From positions 1 through 64,000 of the forward strand of contig JASSKH010000045.1 in the NCBI GenBank assembly GCA_031763025.1: DNA of 64,000 nucleotides. The letters run 5' to 3'. Position numbers and translations under genes: made by a program. Positions 12,642-34,318 of the stretch are shown here, one piece after another (the first letter of the stretch is position 1; each line of letters opens with the position of its first letter). The notes below the pieces were generated by a model. It searched no databases. It was not told where the DNA came from and saw only the letters and a program-made list of their open reading frames with translations. This stretch comes from Macrocystis pyrifera. Taxonomy: Eukaryota; Sar; Phaeophyceae; Laminariales; Laminariaceae.

Positions 12642-13586
12642 TTACCCCCTCCCCCCATTCCCTCTAACACTACCTGCAGCGGATGCACGGCGCTGTCTAC
12701 TCAGCTTTGCCTCAGCCTCGTGCCACCTGCCCATGAACTGTTCAGCTGCTTCGAGGATTCCCCGGTACCACTTTCCCGTCTGTTTTGCTGCAGTGGGCCA
12801 CAGTGCGGTCCCAACTCCAAAGACTAAGGGGGAGTCTTCCGTTGATCCCTCGGTGGCTTTGAACACTCTAAGGTCCTCAGCAATGGGCCTAGGCCAAGTC
12901 TTGGGCTGCCCGCCTGGTTTCGGGCTCCCCCCACCAGCGATCGTCCCGAACATCAACCGACTGGGCAATCGCCCCTCGTGCTGCCGCACCAGAGCCCCCG
13001 CAAAGAAGAGTCGCCGTTCACGGATGGTCGTTTCGATACTTTCGCATCGTGTTATACTGAGCGCCTTCGCATACGAGAGGGTGGTGTGGTCGGTGCGTAG
13101 TCGGCGCTGGAAACCAATGACTCGCAGAAGGACTTCGTGGTGGGCTGATCGAAGCTTGGCGAAGTGGTCCGCATTGAGGGTCCACGTCACGCAACCGTAC
13201 AGCAAGGTCTCAATCACCTCGGCCTTCAGCATCCGGACTTTCAGACTAAGCGGTGCGTTCGTCCTATCGCACAGTTCCGGACCATACCGTTTGAGGCATG
13301 CCCGCATCAGACGGATTCGTCGCTCGATTTCGAAGGAGAGGTCGGCGTTCTCGTGGATAATGCCTCCTAGGTATAAAAACTGGGTCGTATGTTTATACGT
13401 TTGGCCTGCAGCTTCGATCGCGAGCGGTGAGGTGGTAAACGTCTGATCCGGTGTTCGTAGGAGCATCGTCTCTGTCTTCTTCTCGGATACCGTGAGACCT
13501 ACTGCTTCGAAGACAGTCACGATGACTGTCACCATTCCTGCAAGGCCTTCCGCCGACTTCGAGACTATTCCTGCGTCGTCTGAACA
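12642..13586 (-). pseudogene. 3' part of a second LINE-type retrotransposon
   Basis: On the minus strand a frame opens just upstream of an RT active-site remnant, SDDAGIVSKSAEGLAG, the usual YADD or FADD box with its first position changed. It continues for about 300 residues through thumb and C-terminal motifs: VGLTVSEKKTETM, FLYLGGIIHENADLSFEIERRI, VIETLLYGCVTWTL and VIGFQRRLRTDHTTLSY. The 5' part (fingers, palm, endonuclease) is absent, as expected for 5' truncation during target-primed integration. The frame itself is little damaged, so the copy may be younger than the LINE at the left edge. The two differ in sequence and belong to different families. Confidence 0.85.
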
Positions 13587-13769
13587 GGAAAAAGTAAACT
13601 ATTTAGTTGCGCGAGTTGGAACCTAATGGCATTGCATACTAAAACATAAACAATACGAAACGAAAGACACGATGAAACGAACCGGAGTCAGGTGGTTTGA
13701 ATTGTAACGAAACACATCAAACCAAAGCAAATGAGGCCACGTCAAATCCCAAGGAGACAAAACATCACC

Positions 13770-14535
13770 CAACCTGACCGATTTCTTCTTCGCACGCGAC
13801 TCTTTGGCCGGGGCTACCGTTATGAATTAACACCACAACGGGCATCGTTAGGTTCGCAGCAATGAGAAAGCCAGAACAATACCAGAGATACCCTTCCATA
13901 AGGAAGTATTGGTCTTCGTTAGTTTTCGGAAAAAAGACCACGTACATGCTGACCACGACAATGCTGTTTACCCGACGGTACCGGCCCATGTCGGCAGGCC
14001 TTTGGAAGGGAGACAATATCTCTGAAATGAACACGTTCGCCACCGCAAGGAAAAGAGCTATCGACACCTGTGCCGTGCTGTTGGGATGAACAAAAGCCGC
14101 CATGATATTCGAACAAAGTCGACGACCGCACTCTACAACCTCGTAGTACTATCGAGACGGCATATACGCGGCCCATGAACGGTTCAACAGCTTCAGTTGC
14201 AACATAGTTTCCCGGTCGGACCTAACGAAGTCACATCGGCGCCAAATCAGTAACCCCGTGACGGCAGCAGGTATTGCAATAGGATAGACACCCATCATGA
14301 TGAGCGCATATACCTTGTACCAGCTGTGACGAGCTGTCAAGCAGAACATGCTGTAGTCCGCCCGAAGGTATGCTCCATCGTCTAGGTCGTCGCAGCCGAA
14401 CGTTTGGAAGATCTTATACGATACCGGGGAGTACGCCACGAAGGCGACAAAAAGCACGGTAACCTGATGTTTACACCGCACCTCGCGCATTGCAGATTCA
14501 GAAGAGCTGTTTATCTTTTTCCCGATGATATAGCT
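13770..14535 (-). pseudogene. C-terminal membrane part of the split gene, downstream of the copia insertion
   Basis: Reading starts within the exon at the insertion site (ADSYIIGKK) and runs through several hydrophobic spans: VTVLFVAFVAYSPVSYKIF, YKVYALIMMGVYPIAIPA, VSIALFLAVANVFISEIL and IVVVSMYVVFF. A TAG at 14149-14151 falls between AAYMPSR and YYEVVECGRRL, where relatives, as I recall them, have another Tyr, so a single TAC-to-TAG change is likely. The frame then stays open to about 13770, where EEEI is followed by a possible GT donor. No poly(A) signal or final exon was identified. Confidence 0.72.
14531..14535. repeat. Target-site duplication TAGCT, left copy
   Basis: TAGCT abuts the first TG of the left LTR and is repeated directly after the last CA of the right LTR. 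Five base pairs is the usual duplication length for Ty1/copia integrases. Confidence 0.93.
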
Positions 14536-15049
14536 TGAAAAGTATACTCACAGCATTGTCAGATTATCTTGAGAGGAAATATCCCGTGAGGTATTGCGGA
14601 GATTCGGGGGGGTTTCGTGTCTGAGTGGATCTACGATCGGGATACCATCTTTACCCCTGAATTGTGTTTTAGGCCGCATGTGTCTGTGACGTACGCTGTG
14701 GCTTGCTACTTCTTCTTGTAATCTACTTCCTTTCCCGACTCCGTGTCGACGACTCCGTGTCGAGGACTCCGTGTCCAGGACTCCGCGTCCTTCAATCCAA
14801 ACTACTAAACCGGGGTTAATCAGCCACCGTACAAAAGGGGGTCCGTCCACCCAGGGGCTAACACGCCACCGCCACCGCTGCTATCAAGTCCAGCTTCAAT
14901 ACATTTCATATCATCAACAGGGCTCCTCAGCCACGACAAGGGTACGGGTTGTTTATAGGGTTTATTTCGTCTTTCTTTTCCGCCGAGCATCGGGCTATCC
15001 CCCTCGGCAACAACAACAAGGGCGCCCGGAGCACAGGGGCTACTCAACA
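14536..15049 (+). repeat. 5' LTR (514 bp) of the copia element
   Basis: It starts TGAAAAGTATACTCAC and ends GGGGCTACTCAACA (TG...CA termini). A run of near-repeats, GACTCCGTGTCGA / GGACTCCGTGTCCA / GGACTCCGCGTCC, lies in its middle (about 14738-14795). The right LTR has the same length at a constant offset of 7394 bp. The bases after it (CGCTAGCGTTGGTACGAG) should hold the primer-binding site, but I could not match them to a tRNA. Confidence 0.95.
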
Positions 15050-15100
15050 CGCTAGCGTTGGTACGAGTCGTCCACGCTTCTGTGCAAAAGGGCTGTGAGG

Positions 15101-17010
15101 ATGAGGTTCTTCCCGTTTAGGATTCCTTATCTGGGGACTTGGATTACGCCGGTCATCGATGGAGACATGGCGATGGGAGGAGGAGGAGGAGCAGCAGCAT
15201 CTCCTCAGGATTCTGGTCAGGATGAGGCTGATCAGCGAGGGGTGGCCTCAGAGGAAAGGAGGGAGGATGCACGACAGGACCTGCCGAGTCCAGAGGACAT
15301 CCGGCGGCTGACAATCCTGGCGGATCTGATACGTCAAGGGGTTGGGCAACAGAGCGGGCCCGCCCACCCTTCAGGCATGTCTACAACTGTAGAAGTACGA
15401 ACTAAACTTGAGATTAGAGAGTGGACTGGTATGGTAGGAAAAGGAGAAAGCCTTCACACTAAGTTTAGGGTGTTTGAGAGTTCATTTCGTGCATATCTGG
15501 CAGCTGAGAAATTGTCTGACGTTCTTGGGTACGAGGACATTCCCGTAGGGTTGCCTGACGTGGATTTGGAAATGCTCAAATTGAACAGAGGTGCAGAAAG
15601 AGTGGAGAAGTCTTTGAGAGTATGGAACTTGCTGCTGACAAAAATCACCGACGGTCCGACTCAAAACCGAATCGTCGCGTCTGGGAGCCCTCAGCAAGGA
15701 TGGAGGATTTTTGTGTCACAGTACAGAGAAGGATATGACATGGAGGGAGAGCGTTTAGAGAGGGAATGGAACGAGTTGTGGCAGGGCGATGGTGAAGATG
15801 TCTTGGAATACCTTCGTCGTGGGGAAACTATCGTGATGAACATGAACTCCCGCTTGGGCCCTAGTGGCCACGGTAAAAAGCCTGAAGATGTTGTATGTCG
15901 TCATATCGCCCGACGTCTAAACACCTCTTTTACCCGCGCTCGGGAATCCCTTATTTTTTTTTTTCCGAATCTCTCGAGGAAACACCTGGAGTTTACCTTG
16001 ACACAGGCCCAGCACGAGCGTCGGCAGTCCGGGGGAGAGGGACACCGAAGTGAGGAGACGAGGCACGCGCTCTACACTGGCGGCATGGGTCGGAGTGGAC
16101 CATCCTACGGCAGGGGCCAGGATGATGGTGGAGCACGCGCTGCAGGATGGAACGGTGGAGGAGCACGCGCTGCAGGATGGAACGGTGAAGGAGCAGGCGC
16201 TGCCGGATGGAACGGTGGCGGAGCAGGCGAGCGAGGCCCTCACCAACAGTCACCGATGTTCTGCAGACGACACGGCCCGAACGACTCCCACAACACCGCG
16301 GACTGCGTGGCCCTTCGACGGGAGTTCGAGGAATTCTTGGCCTTCCGCGAGCAGAGAGGAGCCCAGGGATTTGCGCATGAAGGCCGACAGACGGGGCGGG
16401 AAATTGACGGAATTCGCCGCCCGGACTTCGTGCAAGATCGACCCAGGGAGCAGCCACAACGTTCAGACGGGAATTGGGGTCGAGGCCTCCCGCCAAGGCA
16501 GGCACCTGGTCGTGGACGCGGGCCTGCAGGGTACACGGGTCGCCAACCGGGGGGGAGAGGTTTCGCGGACGGGCGTCCTTCCTCCTCCGGCGGCAGGGGG
16601 GCGAGCAGAGCACCGAATTTCCGCCCTAATTTTCCACCTCGCTCTGCCACCCACAACGGGCCCCCGCGTTACGCGAACTACGCTGGGCACAACGACGGCT
16701 ACGGGTACAACGCTACTGCGGACGAGCGCTGGGCTGCTTCGGAATGGCAATCCTACGAGGAGCAGCAGTACTCCCCCGAGACGCAAGAGTACGGCCTCGC
16801 AGCTCAAGCGAGCGGCTCTCGGGAAGGCTACGGAGACGTGAGCGGAGGATACGGCTCAGGCTATTTCTCCGGCGGCGGGGGAGTTTACCCGCCGCAGCCC
16901 GCCGTTCATGGCGATGGCACATACGGCTCTTACGCAGGATACTCTCCAGCTGGACCAGACGCCTTTCAGCCGATGCGGTATCTGGAACCGAACGGCGCGT
17001 CACAGCAGCA

Positions 17011-17058
<48 letters not shown>

Positions 17059-17515
17059 ACAGCAATACGGAGTTCAGCAGCCCGCCAGCGCCGCCTCATT
17101 CCCTCTCACTTCGTCGTCTCCCTCTTCCGGATCGCCGTCGTCTCAAGGGCCTCTTCGTAGCTGTGTGGCATTGAATGTGTCTCGAGGCAAGTTTGATTTG
17201 GTGTCCGATTTGGTGTCTGATTCGGCGTCTGACTTGATTGATTTCGGTGTGGAATCTCCTGCTTCTGAGTGCAAGTCTGGTGTGACTAAGGAGAGTGAGA
17301 CTGTGCTTGTGAGTGCGCATGTGACGGAATCTGCTGTGAGTGCTGCTCTGCTGTGCGAACCCCAATCCTCGCTCACTCCCTCCCCTCCCGGAAGTGAGAA
17401 ATGGACGTCTGATTCTGGATCCACGTCGTACGTAACGAACGACAAGACTCTCATGTACGATTTGCGTGACGTTGAGCCAAACCGCGAGTTCATCCAGATG
17501 GAAACAAAGGCATGA
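15101..17515 (+). CDS. Copia Gag with start of protease (broken polyprotein, N-terminal part)
   Basis: ATG at 15101 opens a frame of about 804 residues. The N-terminal third has a Gag capsid-like helical region (RVFESSFRAYLAAEK, TQNRIVASGSPQQGW, ESLIFFFPNLSRKHLEFTLTQA). A glycine/alanine-rich segment with tandem RAAGWNGGGA-like units follows. Next is a nucleocapsid-type zinc knuckle in the variant form C-x2-H-x5-H-x4-C (CRRHGPNDSHNTADC), then an RG/GGR-rich stretch, then a polyglutamine run. Near the C-terminus WTSDSGSTSYVTND is the aspartic protease active site (DSG). The frame then ends early: the sequence reads as if one G was lost in an ATGGGAAAC context near 17500, giving a TGA. The continuation (GMIPVVGVGSINL) lies in the next frame. 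Confidence 0.88.
16990..17065 (+). repeat. CAG/CAA microsatellite encoding polyglutamine in Gag
   Basis: Mostly uninterrupted CAG with scattered CAA codons encode about 24 glutamines, flanked by NGAS and YGVQQPA. The tract stays in frame. It is likely to vary in length between copies. Confidence 0.9.
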
Positions 17516-19759
17516 TTCCCGTGGTAGGGGTAGGAAGCATCAACTTGCGATTCCACATGTATGATGAAGACGGATTCGTGAAGGATTTTGACGTGCAATT
17601 GAAGGAAGTTTTGTATGCACCACAGATCGGCTTCAACCTTTTTTTTTTCCGCGTGGAAAGCTTCTCACCGCCAGGTCGTTACCCTCGATCCCACGGGTAC
17701 CCACCTCATGGAAGGGCAACTCAACTTTGCACGTGGTAAATCGAGCGATTTCTTGTATGCCACACGTTTGCCCAACGACCCAAGCAGGCAGGTGATCAGT
17801 GTTCCCCGATTGTTTCCGACTCCGTCTTGCCCGCCTGCATCAGATGACGTACGTGATGTTGCGAATTCGTTTTTCGACTTGTCTTTGTGTGCAGAAACGC
17901 ATCCCGACATGCACCTCGGTCGGGAAGTCGAGGGAGTTCTGAGTGACGTGAGGCCTGACGGTGGTTGTGATGAGAGTTCCAGTTGGTGTTTCTCGCCTGA
18001 AGTGATCCCAGAGAGTGAAGCAGAAATGGACGCGCGACAGTTTGACAGAATAGAGCATGAGCAGGCGAATGCTGTTTTGGGTCCCGGTTCGAATCCGTTC
18101 TTTGTGGGAAACCGCACGTCACACATCGACGTTAACGACTTCCACCGTGCGAATGGCCACCTTTCCGAATTTCTGTTGCGAGAGACCGCCCGCCAACAGG
18201 GTATCACTCTCACAGGTGTGATGCAGCCGTGTGGGGATTGCATGGCAGCGAAGGGGAGGAACACACCCGTGAGAAAAAGGGCGGGCTCGCGGGCGGAGGA
18301 GCCGAACGACCTCGTGCACCTCGACTTCTGCGGGCCGTACAGCGCTTCCCTCGGCGGCAATTGCTACATGCTGTACGCCGTGGATAGCGCGACGCGGTTT
18401 TCCAAGTCGTACGCTTTGCGGCGGCGATCGGAGGGTCTCGTGGTGTTCAAGCGTCTCATCGTGGATCTCGCTCGCATCGCCAAGCGCCCCGTCCGCTGCA
18501 TTCGCGTGGACAACGACGCCGTCTGGACCAGCGTCGCTTTCCGCGATTTCTGCGCGAGCGCGGGCATCGCCGTCGAGTTTTCTCCGCCCGGCGTCCAGCA
18601 GTACAACGGAGTGGCCGAAAGCGCGATCTGGCGGGCGAACAAGGCGGGGATGGCTGCGCGGCGCTGTGCCGCCCGTCTTCTCGGGCCTGGGGGTTTCTCG
18701 AACATCCCCGGCCTCGACGAGCGCGGCGACAAGCTGTGGGCCGAGTCTGCAAAATGGGCGACGGAGGCGTTCAACCAGTCGGGGACGACCGCAAACGAGG
18801 GCCGCCGGTCGCCGCAGGAGCTGTTCACCGGGAAGAAGGGGCCTTTCCGTGTCCTGCCGTTTTTTTTTTTCCAGCGAGGATACATGCGCGTCGAGCGGCG
18901 GAACAAGATGGAGGACCAGGCCGTCGTCTGCCACTACCTGAACGGAGGCGACAACCACGCGGACTGCTGCGTCAAGGTCGTGAAGGCGCGCACGGGGCAT
19001 GTTTGCTACACGAGCAACGTATCGTGGGCGTCGCTGCCGTCGTCGGGGGGGGGGAATTCACGTGGAGTCGGTGTCCCTCTCTCCCCTTCCGCGCCTGCGC
19101 CGCCCCCGCACCCAGGTTTCCAGATCCAGTTCGTGCCGCCGCAAGGGCCTGCCGCTCCGCCGCCGTTCAGGGCCGCCGCGCCGTCGCCGTTGTCCGTGGA
19201 GCCGCCCAGGTTCGGAGCCATGCCGCTGCCCAGAGGAGCTTCGCCGTCTTCTGCGCCGGCCGCGTCATCGCCGGCGCCGTCGCCGCAGCAAGCATCGGGA
19301 GCGCCGTCGTCCGGCTCGCACCCGCTTCCGGCATGGTCTCCGTCCCCGATCCATGGAGCTTCTTCGCTTGGTGGTTCATCATCATCTGAGCCGACGCCGG
19401 CGGCGTCGTCGCGGCAACAGCGCCCGCCGCCGGCAGCTGCCGCGAGATTTCCGCCTCTCACTCCGCATGCTATGAGACAGGTCGGGGGTGAAGGGGATCG
19501 TCGGATTCAAGGGCGCACTCGGCTGCAAGCACGGGCGATCGCGGAGCAGAGGATGCTTTCCCCGATGGTGGATGGGGCCGTAAACTCGCCGCTGCCGGAG
19601 TCTTCGCCGGGAGATGGGCACCGTTTGGGTCTTGCTTCTCAGGTCGGGCCGAACGTGATGGCGGCGTGGGAGAGGACTTCCTGTGCGACGAGGGAGCATA
19701 TCGATGCGGTCATTCGTGACGAGGTTCCGCCTCTTCAGCGTCCCGAAATGCCCACTTGA
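17516..19759 (+). pseudogene. Copia protease end, GAG-pre-integrase and integrase (frameshifted)
   Basis: From 17516 the protease tail (IPVVGVGSINLRFHM, EVLYAPQIGFNL) reads in a shifted frame up to a run of ten T at 17639-17648. After it the original frame returns with SAWKASHRQVVTLDPTGTHL. The zinc-binding pre-integrase motif is FHRANGH (H-x4-H) followed by CGDC. The integrase core shows HLDFCGPY, RVDNDAVW and GVAESAIW, the three acidic residues of the D,D,E triad. The C-terminal part is a proline/serine/alanine-rich linker usual in copia polyproteins. The frame stops at a TGA (19757-19759) that is in frame with the RT domain, so a single CGA-to-TGA change can explain it. Confidence 0.88.
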
Positions 19760-21319
19760 CACGCGAGTGACCTTCACGTGCCGAAAAGTTACAGGGATGC
19801 CGTGCAGGGTGATCATTCGGTGCAGTTTTCAGATGCCATGCAGAGAGAAATTCACGGGTTGGCTGAAGGACAGGTTTTCGAGCCTGTGCCGGAGCAACAG
19901 CAGATAGACAATTGTATCGGGTCGAAATGGGTGTTTGACTGGAAGGTTGATGCGTTCGGTTGGCCTGTGAAAGCGAAGGCGAGACTTGTTGCCAGAGGTG
20001 ATATGCAGAGAGAATTCTTGGATTTTGGGGAACTGTATGCACCTACTGTAGATGTGTCGTGTGTTCGTTTGCTGGCAGCCTTGGCGTGTGAGCTTGACTT
20101 GGGGTTGTTTCACCTGGATGTTGATCAGGCTTTCGTCCGAGCGGAACTCGAGGAAGAGGTGTTCATGCGTTTACCGCAGGGATGTGGTGCGTTGTCGGGG
20201 AAGATCGTGAATTTGGGCAAGAGTCTTTACGGGTTGAGGCAGGCATCCAGGCAGTGGTTTGCGAAGTTGAAGAAATGTCTTTTGCGTCTGAGTTTCGAAC
20301 AGTGCCTGGCAGATCCATGTGTGTTTCGTCTGATTGAGGAAGGAAAAGTCGTTTTGCTCTTGGTGGTTCACGTCGACGACATTTTTGCAGTGGGAGAACA
20401 GGCAAGGTGTGATCAGTTCAAGGAAGACCTGAACAAATTGGTTCCAGTGAAGAACTTGGGGGATTTGACGTGGTATTCCGGGTGCTATTACGAGAGAGAC
20501 AGGGAGGCAGGAAGATTGACGATTTCCCAGAAGACATACGTCGACAACCTGGCAGGAGAATACGGTGTTACGTGGGGGAAAAGTACGCCGTTGAGCACGA
20601 CGTACAGACTTTGGGAGTTTGATGTAGATGAGCCGGAGGTGAACGAACCTTTTCGACAATTGGTCGGATCGCTTCTGTGGGTCGCTCGGTTGACCAGACC
20701 CGATCTTTTGAACGCAGTACGGGCAGTAGCGAGGTATTGCAGTTCGCCGAAACTGATTCACTGGAATGCGGCGCTCAATATCCTGGGGTATGCAGTGAGG
20801 ACGAGCCATTTTGGTATTTCATTTCAGAGAGGTACTGTCGAGGGGCTGAACTTGGTTGCATTTGCAGACGCTGACTACGCAAGCAAGGCAGCAGACAGGA
20901 GGTCGGTGTCAGGAGGAGTGATTCTGTGTGCGGGGGGGCCGGTCAGCTGTATCTCGAAGACGCAGAATTGTGTGACAACATCTACGACGCAGGCAGAGTA
21001 TGTGAGCATGGCTATGGTTGCGCACGATATTTTGTTTCTGAGGCAGGTATGGCGGTTCATGTTGCCGAAGGCTGGTATGCCGTGCATTCCTTTGTTTGAG
21101 GATAACGAGGGGGCGATTCAGATCGCGAAGCATCCGATTTCGAATTCGAACTCGAAGCACATTGACGTGCGGCACCACTTTCTGAGGGAGCTAGTGGAGA
21201 GGAAGGAATTGGAAATTATTCACGTAGCTTCGAGGTACCAGCACGCAGACTTTCTCACGAAGCCGTTGCCTGAGAGAGAGTTTGAGTTCCACCGGAATTT
21301 TGTGATGAATTTGAGGTGA
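19760..21319 (+). CDS. Copia reverse transcriptase and RNase H domains
   Basis: The reading is in the same frame as Gag and integrase, directly after the TGA. The RT shows KSYRDAVQ, GSKWVFDWK, KARLVARGDMQ, YAPTVDVS, LDVDQAFVRAELEEEVFM, KSLYGLRQASRQWF and the catalytic box VHVDDIFAVG (VDD, as in other copia elements). RNase H follows with AFADADYASKAADRRSVSGG, STTQAEYVSM and FEDNEGAIQIAKHP, then HIDVRHHFLRE and ADFLTKPLPE. Length is complete and the stop at 21317-21319 is natural. With the upstream stop and frameshifts this domain could be made only by readthrough or from an intact relative. Confidence 0.92.
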   Translation, partial: HASDLHVPKSYRDAVQGDHSVQFSDAMQREIHGLAEGQVFEPVPEQQQIDNCIGSKWVFDWKVDAFGWPVKAKARLVARGDMQREFLDFGELYAPTVDVSCVRLLAALACELDLGLFHLDVDQAFVRAELEEEVFMRLPQGCGALSGKIVNLGKSLYGLRQASRQWFAKLKKCLLRLSFEQCLADPCVFRLIEEGKVVLLLVVHVDDIFAVGEQARCDQFKEDLNKLVPVKNLGDLTWYSGCYYERDREAGRLTISQKTYVDNLAGEYGVTWGKSTPLSTTYRLWEFDVDEPEVNEPFRQLVGSLLWVARLTRPDLLNAVRAVARYCSSPKLIHWNAALNILGYAVRTSHFGISFQRGTVEGLNLVAFADADYASKAADRRSVSGGVILCAGGPVSCISKTQNCVTTSTTQAEYVSMAMVAHDILFLRQVWRFMLPKAGMPCIPLFEDNEGAIQIAKHPISNSNSKHIDVRHHFLRELVERKELEIIHVASRYQHADFLTKPLPEREFEFHRNFVMNLR

Positions 21320-21919
21320 TTTTTCGGATGACAGTTTTTGTTTTCAGATGGAGGATTAAGTGTTCGTGATTTTATGGAGTTTGTCGGGTTCACCGTTTTC
21401 ACTTGGTGACACCGCATGTTTTTTCTGGTTCTGTTGGAGCGCAGTTTGTGGAGGATAACATGAAATTACCGTTTTACAAGGGTGGTTTCCACTGCGCAAT
21501 CTATATTTTTTAGTTTTGATACCTTGACGTGAAATTGGCGTTTTACCATGCGATTTCACGAAATTGGATATTTGAAGAAATGAAGAATTGCCGTTTTACC
21601 CTGGCGATTTTGAAAAGGGACTACATTTTAGGATTGATGAAACCTCGCAGAATTGCCGTTTTACATTGACGATTTGGGTAGGTTTCGAAAACAATGTTTG
21701 AATCGTTGGAGTTATTTTCTCTGTTCGAAATATTTTTGAATTCCAGGATGCGAGGATGGTTTGATTTTCTTGGAATTTATTTTTGGTATTGATTGAGGAA
21801 TGATTTGAATGATAGTGAGAACGTTGTTTTCTGTATTGAATGAGTACAAGTATGATTTCCGGTATGACAATTTGACGAGGAGTTGAAGATTCGGGTCGAA
21901 ATCATGACAATGTCGCGAG
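21320..21919 (+). repeat. 3' untranslated region of the copia element with four internal repeats
   Basis: This is non-coding DNA between the RNase H stop and the polypurine tract. The word AATTRSCGTTTTAC recurs at about 21464, 21533, 21586 and 21651, spaced 53-69 bp apart in the same direction and usually followed by a GCGATTT-like word. Role unknown; it could be an RNA packaging or 3'-end signal, which is inference. Confidence 0.7.
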
Positions 21920-21929
21920 CAGGGGGGGC
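21920..21929 (+). promoter_or_regulatory. Polypurine tract for plus-strand priming
   Basis: CAGGGGGGGC lies directly before the TG of the right LTR. A G-rich purine run at this place is the usual primer site for plus-strand DNA synthesis in LTR retrotransposons. The final C next to the LTR is a small departure. Confidence 0.7.
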
Positions 21930-22443
21930 TGAAAAGTATACTCACAGCATTGTCAGATTATCTTGAGAGGAAATATCCCGTGAGGTATTGCGGAGATTCG
22001 GGGGGGTTTCGTGTCTGAGTGGATCTACGATCGGGATACCATCTTTACCCCTGAATTGTGTTTTAGGCCGCATGTGTCTGTGACGTACGCTGTGGCTTGC
22101 TACTTCTTCTTGTAATCTACTTCCTTTCCCGACTCCGTGTCGACGACTCCGTGTCGAGGACTCCGTGTCCAGGACTCCGCGTCCTTCAATCCAAACTACT
22201 AAACCGGGGTTAATCAGCCACCGTACAAAAGGGGGTCCGTCCACCCAGGGGCTAACACGCCACCGCCACCGCTGCTATCAAGTCCAGCTTCAATACATTT
22301 CATATCATCAACAGGGCTCCTCAGCCACGACAAGGGTACGGGTTGTTTATAGGGTTTATTTCGTCTTTCTTTTCCGCCGAGCATCGGGCTATCCCCCTCG
22401 GCAACAACAACAAGGGCGCCCGGAGCACAGGGGCTACTCAACA
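21930..22443 (+). repeat. 3' LTR (514 bp) of the copia element
   Basis: It has the same length and, as far as I can compare by eye, the same sequence as the left LTR, including the GACTCCGTG near-repeats. It ends CAACA and is followed by the second TAGCT. Confidence 0.95.
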
Positions 22444-22448
22444 TAGCT
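22444..22448. repeat. Target-site duplication TAGCT, right copy
   Basis: This matches the TAGCT before the left LTR. Removing one copy together with the element restores the host reading frame across the site (LADSYIIGKK on the minus strand). Confidence 0.93.
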
Positions 22449-22632
22449 ATCCGCCAGGATGACGATCACGATAAGCGGGGTAATCGTGGCGAAAACCAAA
22501 ATGGTCGTAAAATTCATTGCTGAATAAGCAAGAGTGCGAAAAGATGAAACTCAATTCGAGATTGAGTGGGTCCATCTTGGAGGCAAAGGCCTCGTAAAGC
22601 TCCGGGTATGAGTCACCTGTGATGGCGGCAAC
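22449..22632 (-). pseudogene. Membrane exon of the split gene, upstream side of the insertion
   Basis: A splice acceptor (CGCTAG) precedes VAAITGDSYPELYEAFASK, which joins in phase to WQIISQ of the previous exon. The exon continues with KMDPLNLELSFIFSHSCLFSNEFY, but the following membrane span (TILVFATITPLIVIVILADS) is one base out of frame. The change falls near 22503-22507 (TACGACC). A 31-nt GT...AG intron (GTTTCATC...TATTCAG) could also bridge the frames but would delete the conserved Cys block and is very short, so I favour a +1 frameshift or a sequencing error. Confidence 0.68.
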
Positions 22633-23322
22633 CTAGCGAGAGGATAACGGAAGTAACCGGGACAACGCGTGGAGCGTGACGCGGGCAGTCAATATTATAT
22701 TATAAGAGTAATGAGCTAGATCAATCCCGTGAAACACTCACTCGTAACTTGGGCGAGGCTTCCAAATATCTGCAAGAGACGGAATGATTAAAGACAAGCA
22801 CAACCTAACGTAAAGGGCTGAATTGTTTTGAACGATGAGATCTCTGTTCAACGGTTGCACGTTCAACGTAATCTGCAACATCTCCATCACAAAGCTTCTC
22901 GCTTTGCACGGAAGCAAATCGTGGACACCTCACGTCTAAACAGTTTGTTGTGGGATATATTTCGTGCACACAATTATGCTGAACTCTGTAGGATGTCCCG
23001 CTTGATACATATCAGATCCGCGCGTTTTGCCGCATGAGGTAGTCAGCTAGACGTTGGAGCGTCGATAGCATTGTATGCTACGTGCTTTAGTATATCGAGT
23101 CTATCACGATGTCAGTGAACACACGATTCCATTCTTAGATATGCGTCTCAAGACATCGGTTGTGATATTGATCAATCTAGCCTTTTGGCCGGAATTCCCA
23201 CGTATGACAGCGATATTATGTCTCCATAAGCTATCATGGTATAGGGCGCGACTAATTACACGCCAGTGATAGCACATCCACGACTACGTGGTTATCTTGC
23301 GTAGACGGCTACACTCGCATAC
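22633..23322 (-). other. Intron of the split membrane-protein gene
   Basis: A 690-bp interval with a donor GTATGCG after WQIISQ and an acceptor ending CGCTAG. Phase 0 on both sides. No element was recognised inside it. Confidence 0.65.
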
Positions 23323-23618
23323 CTGAGAAATTATCTGCCATACGGTCACGACGATTTTGATAGTCCCGCGTGGAAGTATGTCCACCGGGGACGCCCGGCA
23401 AGGCACGCATTCGCCCTTGCATGAGCCACTTCTCCCCATGCCCTCTTCGGTCCGGTCGGGCACCCCACTCCACATATACGGAAACAGTAGACCGGCAAAT
23501 ACTACCAAAGGCAGAGCCGCGGCCAAAATCCCCACCGTCAATCTCGTGACATCCCGGGAGCATTTACGACAGCTGTGCGCAAGCCCTGACGCAAATCCTT
23601 TGTCACAAACGACGCAGT
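23323..23618 (-). pseudogene. Exon of the split gene: Cys-rich end and first membrane span
   Basis: The acceptor CACTCCAG leads into (Y)CVVCDKGFASGLAHSCRKC, completing the pattern GYTGAYC.VCDKGF across the preceding intron. TVGILAAALPLVVFAGLLF is the first membrane span, followed by a soluble stretch and KIVVTVWQIISQ. The donor is CAG|GTATGC. The exon is 296 nt, phase 1 in and 0 out, and intact by itself. Together with the next exon it gives the strongest family signal in this gene. Confidence 0.72.
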
Positions 23619-23940
23619 CTGGAGTGACACATGGGGGGAGGAATAAGTACTCAGGCGCCTTACTTCGAGTTGGTGGATCATATGCCCAAGAGAAAGCATC
23701 AATCGTACAGCCCCATCGTGCCAAGTCACGTTGTTTCGTACAGGTGGTACTAAACGTGATACATACTTACCTGGTATTCAATAATAAGACACGCCCAAAC
23801 AGGGAAAAATGTATAGCGCGACAAAAATGGATATGCTAATAGCCTTGATAACGCAAGGCACAACTGTTTCCACGACTTGCGCCAGGCGTACCCCAACATG
23901 TGATAGTTCTGGAGTATCCAACATGCAAGTGCTTTCTTAC

Positions 23941-24080
23941 ATGCCCCAGTGTAGCCAGATGTGCAGTAGTTTTCGGTATCGTTGCTGCCCTGACAGACTT
24001 CCTTATTGTGGCACTGTCGAATCTCGAGGCTCTTGTTCGAGATACGGTAGTAGCCTTTTTCGAGCATCGGGTTTACGACG
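23941..24080 (-). pseudogene. Exon of the split gene: cysteine-rich GYYRI segment
   Basis: The segment contains LEKGYYRISNKSLEIRQC, then HNKEVCQGSNDTENYC and TSGYTGA. A donor CAT|GTAAGA splits the codon that becomes Tyr with the next exon. The pattern 'GYYR..C....C.G......C..GYTG..C' is characteristic of the beta-helix/Cys-rich membrane family. I could not fix the upstream boundary; the frame stays open further but without recognisable residues. Confidence 0.62.
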
Positions 24081-24659
24081 GTTGTGCCGCTTAGCGGGCG
24101 GTAGCGCCGAGGGGTGGCTCTGCGCGGACAGGCTTGCTTGCGGTCAGTTCGGACCTCGTTGAGTATTCGCACGCCATGGCGAGCGGTAGAACACCGTGAA
24201 CACACTTCGTCGAAGCACGATTCGCAGAAGTTGGTCTGGTGTGTCGGAAGCGACAGGAGTAGAGCACGAAGAAGTTTAGGGTGGACGAAACAAGAGTTTA
24301 TCGCCAACATTGTGAGAGAATGCGGGAATAAGTAACTACTAAACAAATCTACATCGCGTTGAGAAACATGAATATGCGACTAACCAGAACGAGGTCCAAC
24401 ATATTTTTGTTCTCCTCAGGGGCACCTATGGAAGGGCTTAATTTGTCATCCTATATCTGTGTTGTGATACGTTCGATTCGGGCTACATCAAAACGTTCGG
24501 GTCCTATAAACAACCCCTGGCAATGTTTAGTGCCTTGACTTATGTACAATCTATAAGCTAAACACTACAATCAGACAGCTGAGAGGAGGCTCAATGCGTT
24601 TTTTTTTATCGCGTTATGTTTCGCCTATTGCTGTTGTATGTACGAACTAATGATTCTCT

Positions 24660-26920: not shown

Positions 26921-27925
26921 GCTCGCTGGGCTTGATGCTCGATGTCGCTTCAGCGTATCAACTGCTCCAGCTGAAGCTGGATCAGCTTCTCCCGGTCCTC
27001 GTCGCGGTAGCGTACTCGCCAGTAGCGGTCTCTGTAGTCGTACACCGGTCTCTGTGGTCTGAGACCGACACCAAAGTCATTTTATATAGCAACATCTACC
27101 GGGGCCAAGGCTGACCCACATGGGAGTCGATCCATTATCTTCACGTGAGGGATACCGTGTTGGTGAGTATCTGAGCCTGTTGGTTGATGTCGAGTGGCTT
27201 CATTTTGTCGCAGGATTCCGACGACCGCGTCACTTCCCCCCATTACTGACATCAAAACGAACGCGGAAGGGAAAGGAAGGAACAATCATAACCGGAAGGC
27301 CTAGGCGTTAGATCCAAGATCAAAGACATATGTAAGGGCAATATGCTCCTCGGTGTGTCCTTCACCTTCCAACAAATAAGGGAAAATAACCCTAAGAACA
27401 AAATAACAAGGATCGACACGCACGCACAGCGGACACGAGTCGGGAGTAAAGCCCCCGGGCACATGCGGCGGAATATGGGCGTCCGCAAAAGCGCAGTCGG
27501 ATGCACGGGCATGTGGGGTTCTATACACGTGCAAGCCCCGTAGCAAGGTACAGGCCTAGAGGAACCTGGTTACCGTCTCCATTCAGCATGGAAGACAGCC
27601 GCACCGGTCCCAATAAGCACATACTTAACCGTTTTGGGCGTCCACCCTGTTCCAACAAGGCAACAAATGATCATCCAGACAAAGCAGAAACCGAAACAGA
27701 GAAAAACCTAAACCAAAGCAAATGCAAGTAAAGCCCGTGGCAAGGCACAGACCGATAGAGGTGTGGTTGCCGTCTCCTTTTGGTATGGGGGGCAGCAACA
27801 AGGGTTCCAATAGGGACAGACCCACCCTTCTGGGCATCTATCCTCTCTCTCCGAGAAACAAAACGAAAGTCCAACAAGCGAACAAACATAAAGAAACGGA
27901 AACAAACAAGAACAAACGCACACGT
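26921..27925. other. No gene recognised
   Basis: Only short frames without domains. Two similar stretches mentioning GTAYAGGCCTAGAGGNACCTGGTTACCGTCTCC-type sequence (about 27525-27580 and 27725-27785) look like diverged copies of one unidentified repeat. Confidence 0.4.
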
Positions 27926-27948
27926 AGGGTTAGGGTTAGGGTTAGGGT
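27926..27948 (+). repeat. Telomere-like TTAGGG tract at the edge of a satellite array
   Basis: GTAGGG followed by three GTTAGGG-type units directly precedes the satellite word TTGTACATCGCC. The other edge of the array (about 29064-29094) carries degenerate CCSTAACC/CCCCAACC units at the same satellite position. Confidence 0.85.
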
Positions 27949-28780
27949 TGTACATCGCCTCACGCAAAATGCATACGTTAATGTTACGATCTTCTTCGCA
28001 CCAAGAGTTGTATTGCCCATACAAACATCCTCCCAAACTTATACAGGGCGCTCTGGTGCCGTTTACGAAAAATGGGCTATCCACTGGGGCGCCGAAGGCG
28101 CCTCTACTGTACTACCAGCACACTCCCATCCAGGCACCAAAATGCAGACTTGTACATCGCCTCACGCCAAATCCATACATTAATGTCAGGATCATTTTCG
28201 CACCAAGACTGCTATGAACTATACAAACATCCTCCCCAACATATACAGGGCGCTCTGGTGCCGTTTACGAGAATGGGCTACCCACTGGGCGCCGAAGGCG
28301 CCTCTACTGTACTACCAGCGCACTCCCATCCAGGCACCAAAATGCAGATGCAGACAATGCAGATGCAGACCTGTACATCGCCTCACGCAAAATCCATTCA
28401 TTAATGTTAGGATATTTTTCGCGGCATGATTGATATTGCCCATACAAACATCCTCCTAAAATAATTATGCAAGTCGCTCTGGCGCCGTTTGCGAGATATG
28501 GACTATCCACTCGACATCGACGGCGACCTTACCATACTACCATCGCACTCCCATCCTGGGGACAAAATACAGATTTGTACCATCGCCTCACGCAAACTCC
28601 ATATATTAATGTTAGGATTATCTTCGCACCAAGATTGATATTGCCCATACAAACATCCTCCCAAAATTATACAGGTCGCGCTGGTGCCGTTTGTGATAAA
28701 TGGGCCGTCCACTCGGCACCGAAGGCGACCTTACCGTACTACCAGCGCACTCCCATCCTGGCGACAAAATATAGACTTTG
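27949..28780 (+). repeat. Satellite of about 203 bp, direct units
   Basis: The word GTACATCGCCTCACGC recurs at about 27949, 28152, 28373 and, with one extra base, 28576. This gives spacings of 203, 221 and 203 bp; the 221-bp unit has an extra ATGCAGATGCAGAC-type duplication. Each unit also holds ATTAATGTTAGGATN, CATACAAACATCCTCC and GGCGCCTCTACTGTACTACC. No coding capacity. Confidence 0.9.
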
Positions 28781-33761: not shown

Positions 33762-34318
33762 GTCACCTGGATGGGAGTGCGCTGGCAGTACGGTAAAGGC
33801 GCCTTCGGCGCCGAGTGGATGGTAAATTTCTCGCAAACGGCACCAGAGCGACAAGTATAATGTTAAGAGGATGTTTGTATGGACAATAGAAGTCTTGGTG
33901 CGAAAATGATCCTAACATTAATGCATGGATTTTGCGTGAGGCGATGTACAACCCTAACCCTAACCCCAACCCTAACCCTGCGCCCCAGTGGATGGTCCAT
34001 TTCTCGCAAACGGCACCAAAGCGAGCTGTACGATTTTAGGAGAATGTTGGCATGGGCCATAGCAATCTTGGTACCAAAACGATCCTAACATTAATGTATG
34101 GATTTTGCGTGAGGCGATGTGCAAGTCTGCATTTTGGTGCCTGGATGGGAGTGTGCTGGTAGTACAGTAGAGGCGTAGGCGCCCCAGTGGATAGCCCATT
34201 TCTCGTAAATGGCACCAGAACGACCTGTATAATTTTAGGAGGATGTTGGTATGGGCCATAGCAGTCTTGGCGACAAAACGATCCTAACATTAATGTATGG
34301 ATTTTGCGTGAGGCGATA
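33762..34318 (-). repeat. Second array of the ~203-bp satellite, interrupted by a telomere-like tract
   Basis: Three units with the same words as the 28-kb array (GGATGGGAGTGCGCTGG, AGGATGTTTGTATGG, TTTGCGTGAGGCGATG). At about 33951-33978 the unit breaks after GGCGATGTACAA and continues as CCCTAACCCTAACCCCAACC before resuming at GCGCCCCAGTGGATG, that is, at the same satellite position as in the other array. Confidence 0.88.

What the first reader, a model, noticed from the sequence alone, without database searches (positions are those of the whole stretch)
14531..22448. A copia element with apparently identical LTRs sits inside a host exon, with a perfect TAGCT duplication
Both LTRs are 514 bp at a constant 7394-bp offset and appear identical. 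The outer bases are TG...CA, and TAGCT flanks the element. Removing the element and one TAGCT makes the minus-strand host sequence read continuously from ...VILAD through SYIIGKK into the downstream exon. This marks a very recent insertion that may still be polymorphic.
Basis: seen in the sequence. Interest (0 to 1): 0.8.

Follow-up and report, generated by a model that had tools for sequence, protein, structure and literature searches.

The report
Kelp copia element with leaky-stop reverse transcriptase
A recent jumping-gene copy sits in a probably decayed kelp gene, and its family, like related families, has a stop signal just before its copying enzyme that ribosomes probably have to read through to make that enzyme.

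Summary
Both LTRs (14536-15049, 21930-22443) are 514 bp with 0 differences, TG...CA ends and a TAGCT duplication. The 38 other scored genome matches to the joined flanks all run across the junction, at 66-81% identity. They are paralogues; no empty allele was seen. The host copy carries a frame change and an in-frame stop, so it was probably already a pseudogene.

The genome matches the giant kelp assembly. The element belongs to a burst: 96 exact LTR/PBS junctions, and 19 of 20 sampled pairs with perfect 5-bp duplications. LTR identity alone bounds the age only at a few million generations.

The new result: the pol frame stops between integrase and reverse transcriptase. All 100 listed sites (of 102) read TGA there, yet the RT/RNase H frame behind it is open in 70 of 71 full-length matches. 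In 28 related loci (integrase 42-49% identical) 25 carry TAG near the start of RT, each followed by CAR YYA, the type I readthrough motif. RT behind that stop shows purifying selection. I infer programmed readthrough; it is untested in cells.

The parts
14531..14535 (.). target-site duplication TAGCT, left copy
14536..15049 (+). 5' LTR, 514 bp, TG...CA
   Evidence: identical to the 3' LTR; 40 of 40 scored genome matches, the window's two included, are 100% identical (225 candidates)
15050..15073 (+). presumed primer-binding region just behind the 5' LTR; primer tRNA not identified
   Evidence: 96 exact copies of the 36-bp LTR/PBS junction in the genome
15056..17515 (+). Gag-like frame running into the protease motif (DSGST; motif recalled)
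   Evidence: no Pfam gag match
17516..17602 (+). protease stretch whose frame is broken in this copy
   Evidence: a 423-bp piece over this region is open in 18 of 19 other copies
17603..19756 (+). integrase frame (rve) and proline-rich linker
   Evidence: PF00665 E=3.5e-10
19757..19759 (+). in-frame TGA, followed by C, between integrase and reverse transcriptase
   Evidence: 100 of 100 listed sites, of 102 found, read TGA
19760..21319 (+). reverse transcriptase and RNase H frame, 519 codons
   Evidence: PF07727 E=7.9e-44; open in 70 of 71 matches that cover all 519 residues
21919..21929 (+). polypurine tract next to the 3' LTR
   Evidence: 107 pattern hits of tract plus LTR start in the genome, 100 listed, one of them a host flank
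21930..22443 (+). 3' LTR, 514 bp
22444..22448 (.). target-site duplication TAGCT, right copy
13819..14535 (-). host exon 3, distal part, with an in-frame TAG
22449..22698 (-). host exon 3, proximal part, with a frame change near 22500
23206..23670 (-). host exon 2 by homology to paralogues
23876..24238 (-). host exon 1 by homology to paralogues

Best explanation
Shown: this is one copy of a young, high-copy Ty1/copia (Pseudoviridae) family, inserted with a 5-bp duplication into the third exon (by homology) of one member of a large kelp gene family. Also shown: the family is laid out as Gag-PR-IN, one stop codon, then RT-RNase H in the same frame. Inferred: the stop is a programmed leaky stop. 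Most ribosomes would end after integrase and make Gag-PR-IN. A minority would read through and make Gag-PR-IN-RT-RH, which sets reverse transcriptase below Gag and integrase. In related families the stop is UAG with CAR YYA near the start of RT. In the window family that stop is absent and a UGA followed by C lies about 43 codons further upstream.
For: LTRs, duplications and empty paralogous sites. TGA at 100 of 100 listed sites (102 found), with the RT/RH frame open in 70 of 71 full-length matches. The IN-bearing frame reaches 1555-1578 codons in 7 of 112 family rows. In 28 related loci, 25 read TAG at the homologous site, and 25 of those 25 are followed by CAACCA or CAATTA. In 6 of 28 the IN and RT frames agree and that TAG is the only stop from the end of the integrase match to the site. 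Among 166 codon columns around the site no other column has a stop in more than 4 of 28. RT behind the TAG has dN/dS 0.08 (dS 0.70) and 0.13 (dS 2.0) in two between-group pairs. 59 of 65 sites of a pattern that allowed four codons there read TAG. UAG CAR YYA is the type I readthrough signal (passages of PMC11166343; PMC2754532). Control: 16 RT loci of other kelp copia families, fetched because a TAG was reported inside RT, have their stops at scattered places, none in the CAR YYA context.
Against: No readthrough was measured. The window family's context (UGA CAC) is not one of the strong type II contexts, and the 124 nt from the stop on fold no better than shuffles (z +1.5). Because the window family is one young burst, TGA at every listed site could come from one master. 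The window copy has frame breaks in the protease region, so this copy may not work, or the assembly may be wrong there. Sister loci are mostly degraded, and copies within a group share the TAG by descent; 3 of 28 do not read it at the site. Some between-group dN/dS values are as high as 0.42, and the pairs were picked by me (9 sister pairs, 2 of them with saturated dS). Splicing is not excluded: with plain GT...AG ends, 147 frame-keeping trial introns exist over the TGA.
Confidence: 0.68

Rival explanations
1. In the window family the TGA is a null mutation of one master element that was amplified in trans by proteins of other elements, so the window family is non-autonomous.
For: The copies are near-identical and so descend from a recent source. 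Copia families carrying only a gag-like ORF exist in Ectocarpus (passage of PMC12477816), and a mutated copia master amplified in tomato (abstract of PMC3701649).
Against: Related families keep a stop at nearly the same place with a readthrough motif and a selected RT, and no site with a sense codon was listed for the window family (100 of 100 TGA, 102 found). The RT frame behind the TGA is undamaged in 70 of 71 full-length matches.
Confidence: 0.2
2. RT-RH is made without readthrough, by splicing out the stop, by an internal promoter or by re-initiation.
For: 147 frame-keeping GT...AG trial introns exist over the TGA, 10 of them with a GTR.G donor. A minor internal promoter was found at the gag-pol junction of Tca2 in a yeast reporter, although that paper concludes that pol comes from the gag-pol RNA (abstract of PMC2194720).
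Against: No GTRAG donor in the roughly 450 nt upstream of the TGA. The sister stop has exactly the type I motif, which splicing or an internal promoter would not need.
Confidence: 0.1
3. The junction or the LTR identity is an assembly artefact.
For: Long-read assembly polished with Racon, the only polishing its methods section names; length differences of this copy in the polypurine run and the protease region.
Against: A perfect 5-bp duplication here and at 19 of 20 other sites with different flanks; mean read length 15.8 kb exceeds the element.
Confidence: 0.02

Closest known systems
Ty1/copia elements (Pseudoviridae), such as the 35 Copia families of Ectocarpus (passages of PMC12477816)
   Same: LTRs, 5-bp duplication, IN before RT, RVT_2 reverse transcriptase
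   Different: A single stop codon lies between IN and RT. 15 RT loci of other kelp copia families, picked for long open frames, run through that boundary in frame.
Tca2 of Candida albicans (PMC2194720, abstract seen)
   Same: Retrotransposon with an in-frame UGA that must be bypassed to make pol (its copia-type membership recalled)
   Different: In Tca2 the stop is between gag and pol with a potential pseudoknot, not between IN and RT.
SIRE1 of soybean (described in a passage of PMC2829016; the original paper was not read)
   Same: A Sirevirus (copia) element that uses stop codon suppression
   Different: In SIRE1 the stop separates pol from the envelope-like gene.
Tobamovirus-type (type I) readthrough, UAG CAR YYA
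   Same: The sister families' stop context fits it in 25 of 25 TAG loci
   Different: Described in the passages seen for plant RNA viruses; here it sits in a retrotransposon before RT. The window family does not have it.

Membership tests
Ty1/copia LTR retrotransposon | integrase upstream of reverse transcriptase (copia order) | tested here: met
   rve in 17603-19756, RVT_2 in 19760-21316
Ty1/copia LTR retrotransposon | LTRs with TG...CA ends and a 5-bp target duplication | tested here: met
Ty1/copia LTR retrotransposon | primer-binding site complementary to a host tRNA | not tested
   no kelp tRNA was compared; the region behind the LTR is conserved in 96 copies
Ty1/copia LTR retrotransposon | polypurine tract at the 3' LTR | tested here: met
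type I stop-codon readthrough (UAG CAR YYA) | UAG followed by CAR YYA, in the sister families | tested here: met
   25 of 28 loci read TAG and 25 of 25 of these have CAR YYA
type I stop-codon readthrough (UAG CAR YYA) | UAG followed by CAR YYA, in the window family | tested here: not met
   the stop is TGA CAC
type II stop-codon readthrough (UGA CGG/CUA, often a stem-loop) | CGG or CUA after UGA, stem-loop downstream, in the window family | tested here: not met
   UGA CAC; no fold better than shuffles
stop-codon readthrough, any type | measured extended product | not testable with these tools
   needs reporters, ribosome profiling or proteomics
non-autonomous element mobilised in trans | family lacks a functional RT of its own | tested here: inconclusive
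   RT frame open in 70 of 71 full-length matches but behind a stop

The most novel reading that the evidence does not exclude
A brown-algal copia lineage regulates the dose of reverse transcriptase itself, not of Pol as a whole, by reading through a stop placed between integrase and RT. The stop has been replaced during evolution (UAG CAR YYA near the RT start in related families, UGA C about 43 codons upstream in the window family) while the arrangement persisted, and a family using it has recently spread to about a hundred copies in giant kelp.
Probability: 0.55. Interest if true: 0.68.

Novelty: new variant of a known kind. Interest (0 to 1): 0.55.

Why it matters
LTR retroelements commonly set the Gag:Pol ratio by recoding between gag and pol (established knowledge, recalled). 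Here recoding would act inside pol, so Gag, protease and integrase would be made in equal amounts and only RT-RH would be scarce. That would be a natural test of which ratio retrotransposition needs. It would also put the tobamovirus-type leaky stop into a stramenopile retroelement lineage, and it gives a readthrough case in brown algae that can be tested with short reporters. The insertion itself is ordinary but shows that the family has been active recently.

Tried and rejected
Rejected: a very recent age as shown by LTR identity alone (the bound is millions of generations at brown-algal rates); the host exon as an intact gene (frame change, TAG, dS about 0.5 to the 13 paralogues compared against 0 between the LTRs); a multicopy deletion derivative (the junction of the short C193 copy occurs once); an intron with a consensus GTRAG donor over the TGA (weaker donors exist); a stable RNA structure behind the TGA; a general habit of stops in kelp copia RTs (stops of 16 other-family loci are scattered). 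The viral-contig scan confirmed no relative of the RT. Rfam at gathering scores and tRNA scans of the window were empty. L163, L167 and L176 are counted as not TAG; L176 holds an intact motif elsewhere in its piece, so 25 of 28 is conservative.

Full report
Observation. The two LTRs are 514 bp, at offset 7394, with no difference. The element ends in TG...CA and is flanked by TAGCT. The genome held has 537,376,219 bases in 223 contigs. One contig is 13,669,674 bases long, the exact N50 printed for the Macrocystis pyrifera assembly, which also has 537 Mb and 223 contigs. I take it to be that assembly, made from one haploid female gametophyte with PacBio reads and polished with Racon (passages and section 14 of PMC10498591).

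Host site. The joined flanks hit 38 other places at 66-81% identity (40 scored of 45 candidates, 2 being the window's own flanks), all running across the junction, so the site is homologous to coding sequence of a large gene family. No second copy of these flanks was found, as expected for a haploid assembly. In 14 paralogues fetched (L011-L024), 13 have an open frame of at least 334 codons here. The window copy has an extra base near 22500 and an in-frame TAG. Its dS to the 13 paralogues is 0.42-0.54, far older than the insertion. It was probably a pseudogene when hit, although its dN/dS (0.41-0.62) is not clearly higher than among paralogues (median 0.48 of 78 pairs), and the extra base could be an assembly error. 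Pfam gives no match above a cut-off for the window's host pieces or two exons of one paralogue.

Family and age. 40 of 40 scored LTR matches, the window's two included, are identical to the window's, of 225 first-look candidates. 96 exact LTR/PBS junctions exist. From 96 PBS and 99 PPT places (100 listed of 107, one non-PPT row dropped) 84 pairs form, 61 of them 7370-7420 bp apart. Of 20 sampled pairs, chosen because an LTR was identical to the window's, 19 have a perfect 5-bp duplication, one differs at one base, and 15 of 20 have identical LTRs; the choice favours identical LTRs. Of 30 first LTRs taken from the PBS list in contig order, the window's included, 23 are 514 bp with the expected start; they differ pairwise by 0.95 of 514. 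With the two brown-algal rates in the abstract of PMC10254074 this is about 0.8 to 2.3 million generations, and 0/514 alone allows up to 2.4 to 7 million. These rates are not from kelps.

Reading frame. In the window the protease part is frame-broken; a 423-bp piece over it is open in 18 of 19 other copies, and the window differs from all of them in four alignment columns, all length changes. A 900-nt stretch behind the first LTR, set against 29 other copies, shows no private change in the window. The TGA between IN and RT is different. Of 20 sampled pieces 16 hold it, and 4 come from another part of the element because those copies are internally deleted. Genome-wide, 100 of 100 listed sites (102 found) read TGA where any codon was allowed. 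Behind it, 70 of 71 matches that cover all 519 residues have exactly that frame open (83 candidates scored, 85 match rows listed). The IN-bearing frame reaches 1555-1578 codons in 7 of 112 family rows, rows not being copies. That is the length from the Gag-like start to the TGA, so I read Gag-PR-IN as one frame.

Is the stop programmed? Other copia families of this genome do not show it. The RVT_2 search scored 150 of 2745 candidates. I fetched 15 RT loci picked for long open frames (1211-1656 codons): they fall into about three families, 29-32% identical to the window RT, and have no stop in RT or the roughly 40 codons before it, as that choice would favour. I also fetched 16 of the rows reported with a TAG inside RT: their stops lie at scattered places, and none has the CAR YYA context. 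The integrase search listed 28 loci at 42-49% identity (139 scored of 2482 candidates). I fetched a piece downstream of integrase for all 28. At the site 43-46 codons into the region aligned to the window RT frame, 25 of 28 read TAG, and 25 of 25 of these continue CAACCA (20) or CAATTA (5). The first 16 loci form four nucleotide groups, 64-87% alike between groups where BLAST aligned them; some pairs gave no alignment. In six of the 28 the IN and RT frames agree and this TAG is the only stop from the end of the integrase match to the site; the rest have further stops or frame changes, as old copies do. Over 166 codon columns no other column holds a stop in more than 4 of 28. A wider pattern that allowed four codons at the site gave 59 TAG of 65 places. 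RT behind the TAG has dN/dS from 0.08 to 0.42 in the 7 of 9 between-group pairs with finite dS. One pair with dS 2.0 still shares TAG CAA YYA. A stop kept with its six-base context through that much synonymous change, with RT still selected behind it, is what programmed readthrough predicts. UAG CAR YYA is the type I signal (passages of PMC11166343 and PMC2754532).

The window family itself is the weaker case. It has no TAG at the sister site; its stop is UGA followed by CAC, and one paper calls UGA CNN contexts other than CUA and CGG ostensibly less leaky. No RNA fold stands out. I read it as a replaced stop. A dead stop carried by a trans-mobilised master remains possible (0.2), and splicing is not excluded.

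Prior reports. Searches of the open-access library with sets of terms on copia, retrotransposons, stop codon, readthrough and integrase listed no paper whose title or abstract start tells of a stop between IN and RT; I judged from listings and abstracts only, and 15 of 64 and 8 of 22 papers were listed in the last two. Known relatives in principle are Tca2 (abstract) and SIRE1 (one passage).

Verdict. The insertion is confirmed and ordinary. The conserved stop between integrase and RT is the part worth following.

Noticed in passing
12645-13598 (-): Fragment of a LINE-like reverse transcriptase (RVT_1, E=0.0039, below the curated cut-off) just behind the host gene copy.
   Followed up: no
C189:17773523 in the genome (L086, L066): Another copy of the family has the same TAGCT duplication in unrelated flanks; probably chance.
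   Followed up: no
L007/L008 (C193) and C203:6322299: Two internally deleted copies with spacings 2989 and 2974. The C193 deletion joins element positions 1058 and 5458 at an 8-bp repeat, and its junction occurs once in the genome.
   Followed up: partly
27925-27949 and 33950-33979: Short TAGGGT/AACCCT arrays that look like interstitial telomere-type repeats.
   Followed up: no
28372-28780: A 202-bp tandem duplication, 84% matches.
   Followed up: no
21919-21929: The polypurine G run is one base longer than in nearly all copies: of the 99 PPT rows listed, 2 have the window's length, itself included.
   Followed up: partly
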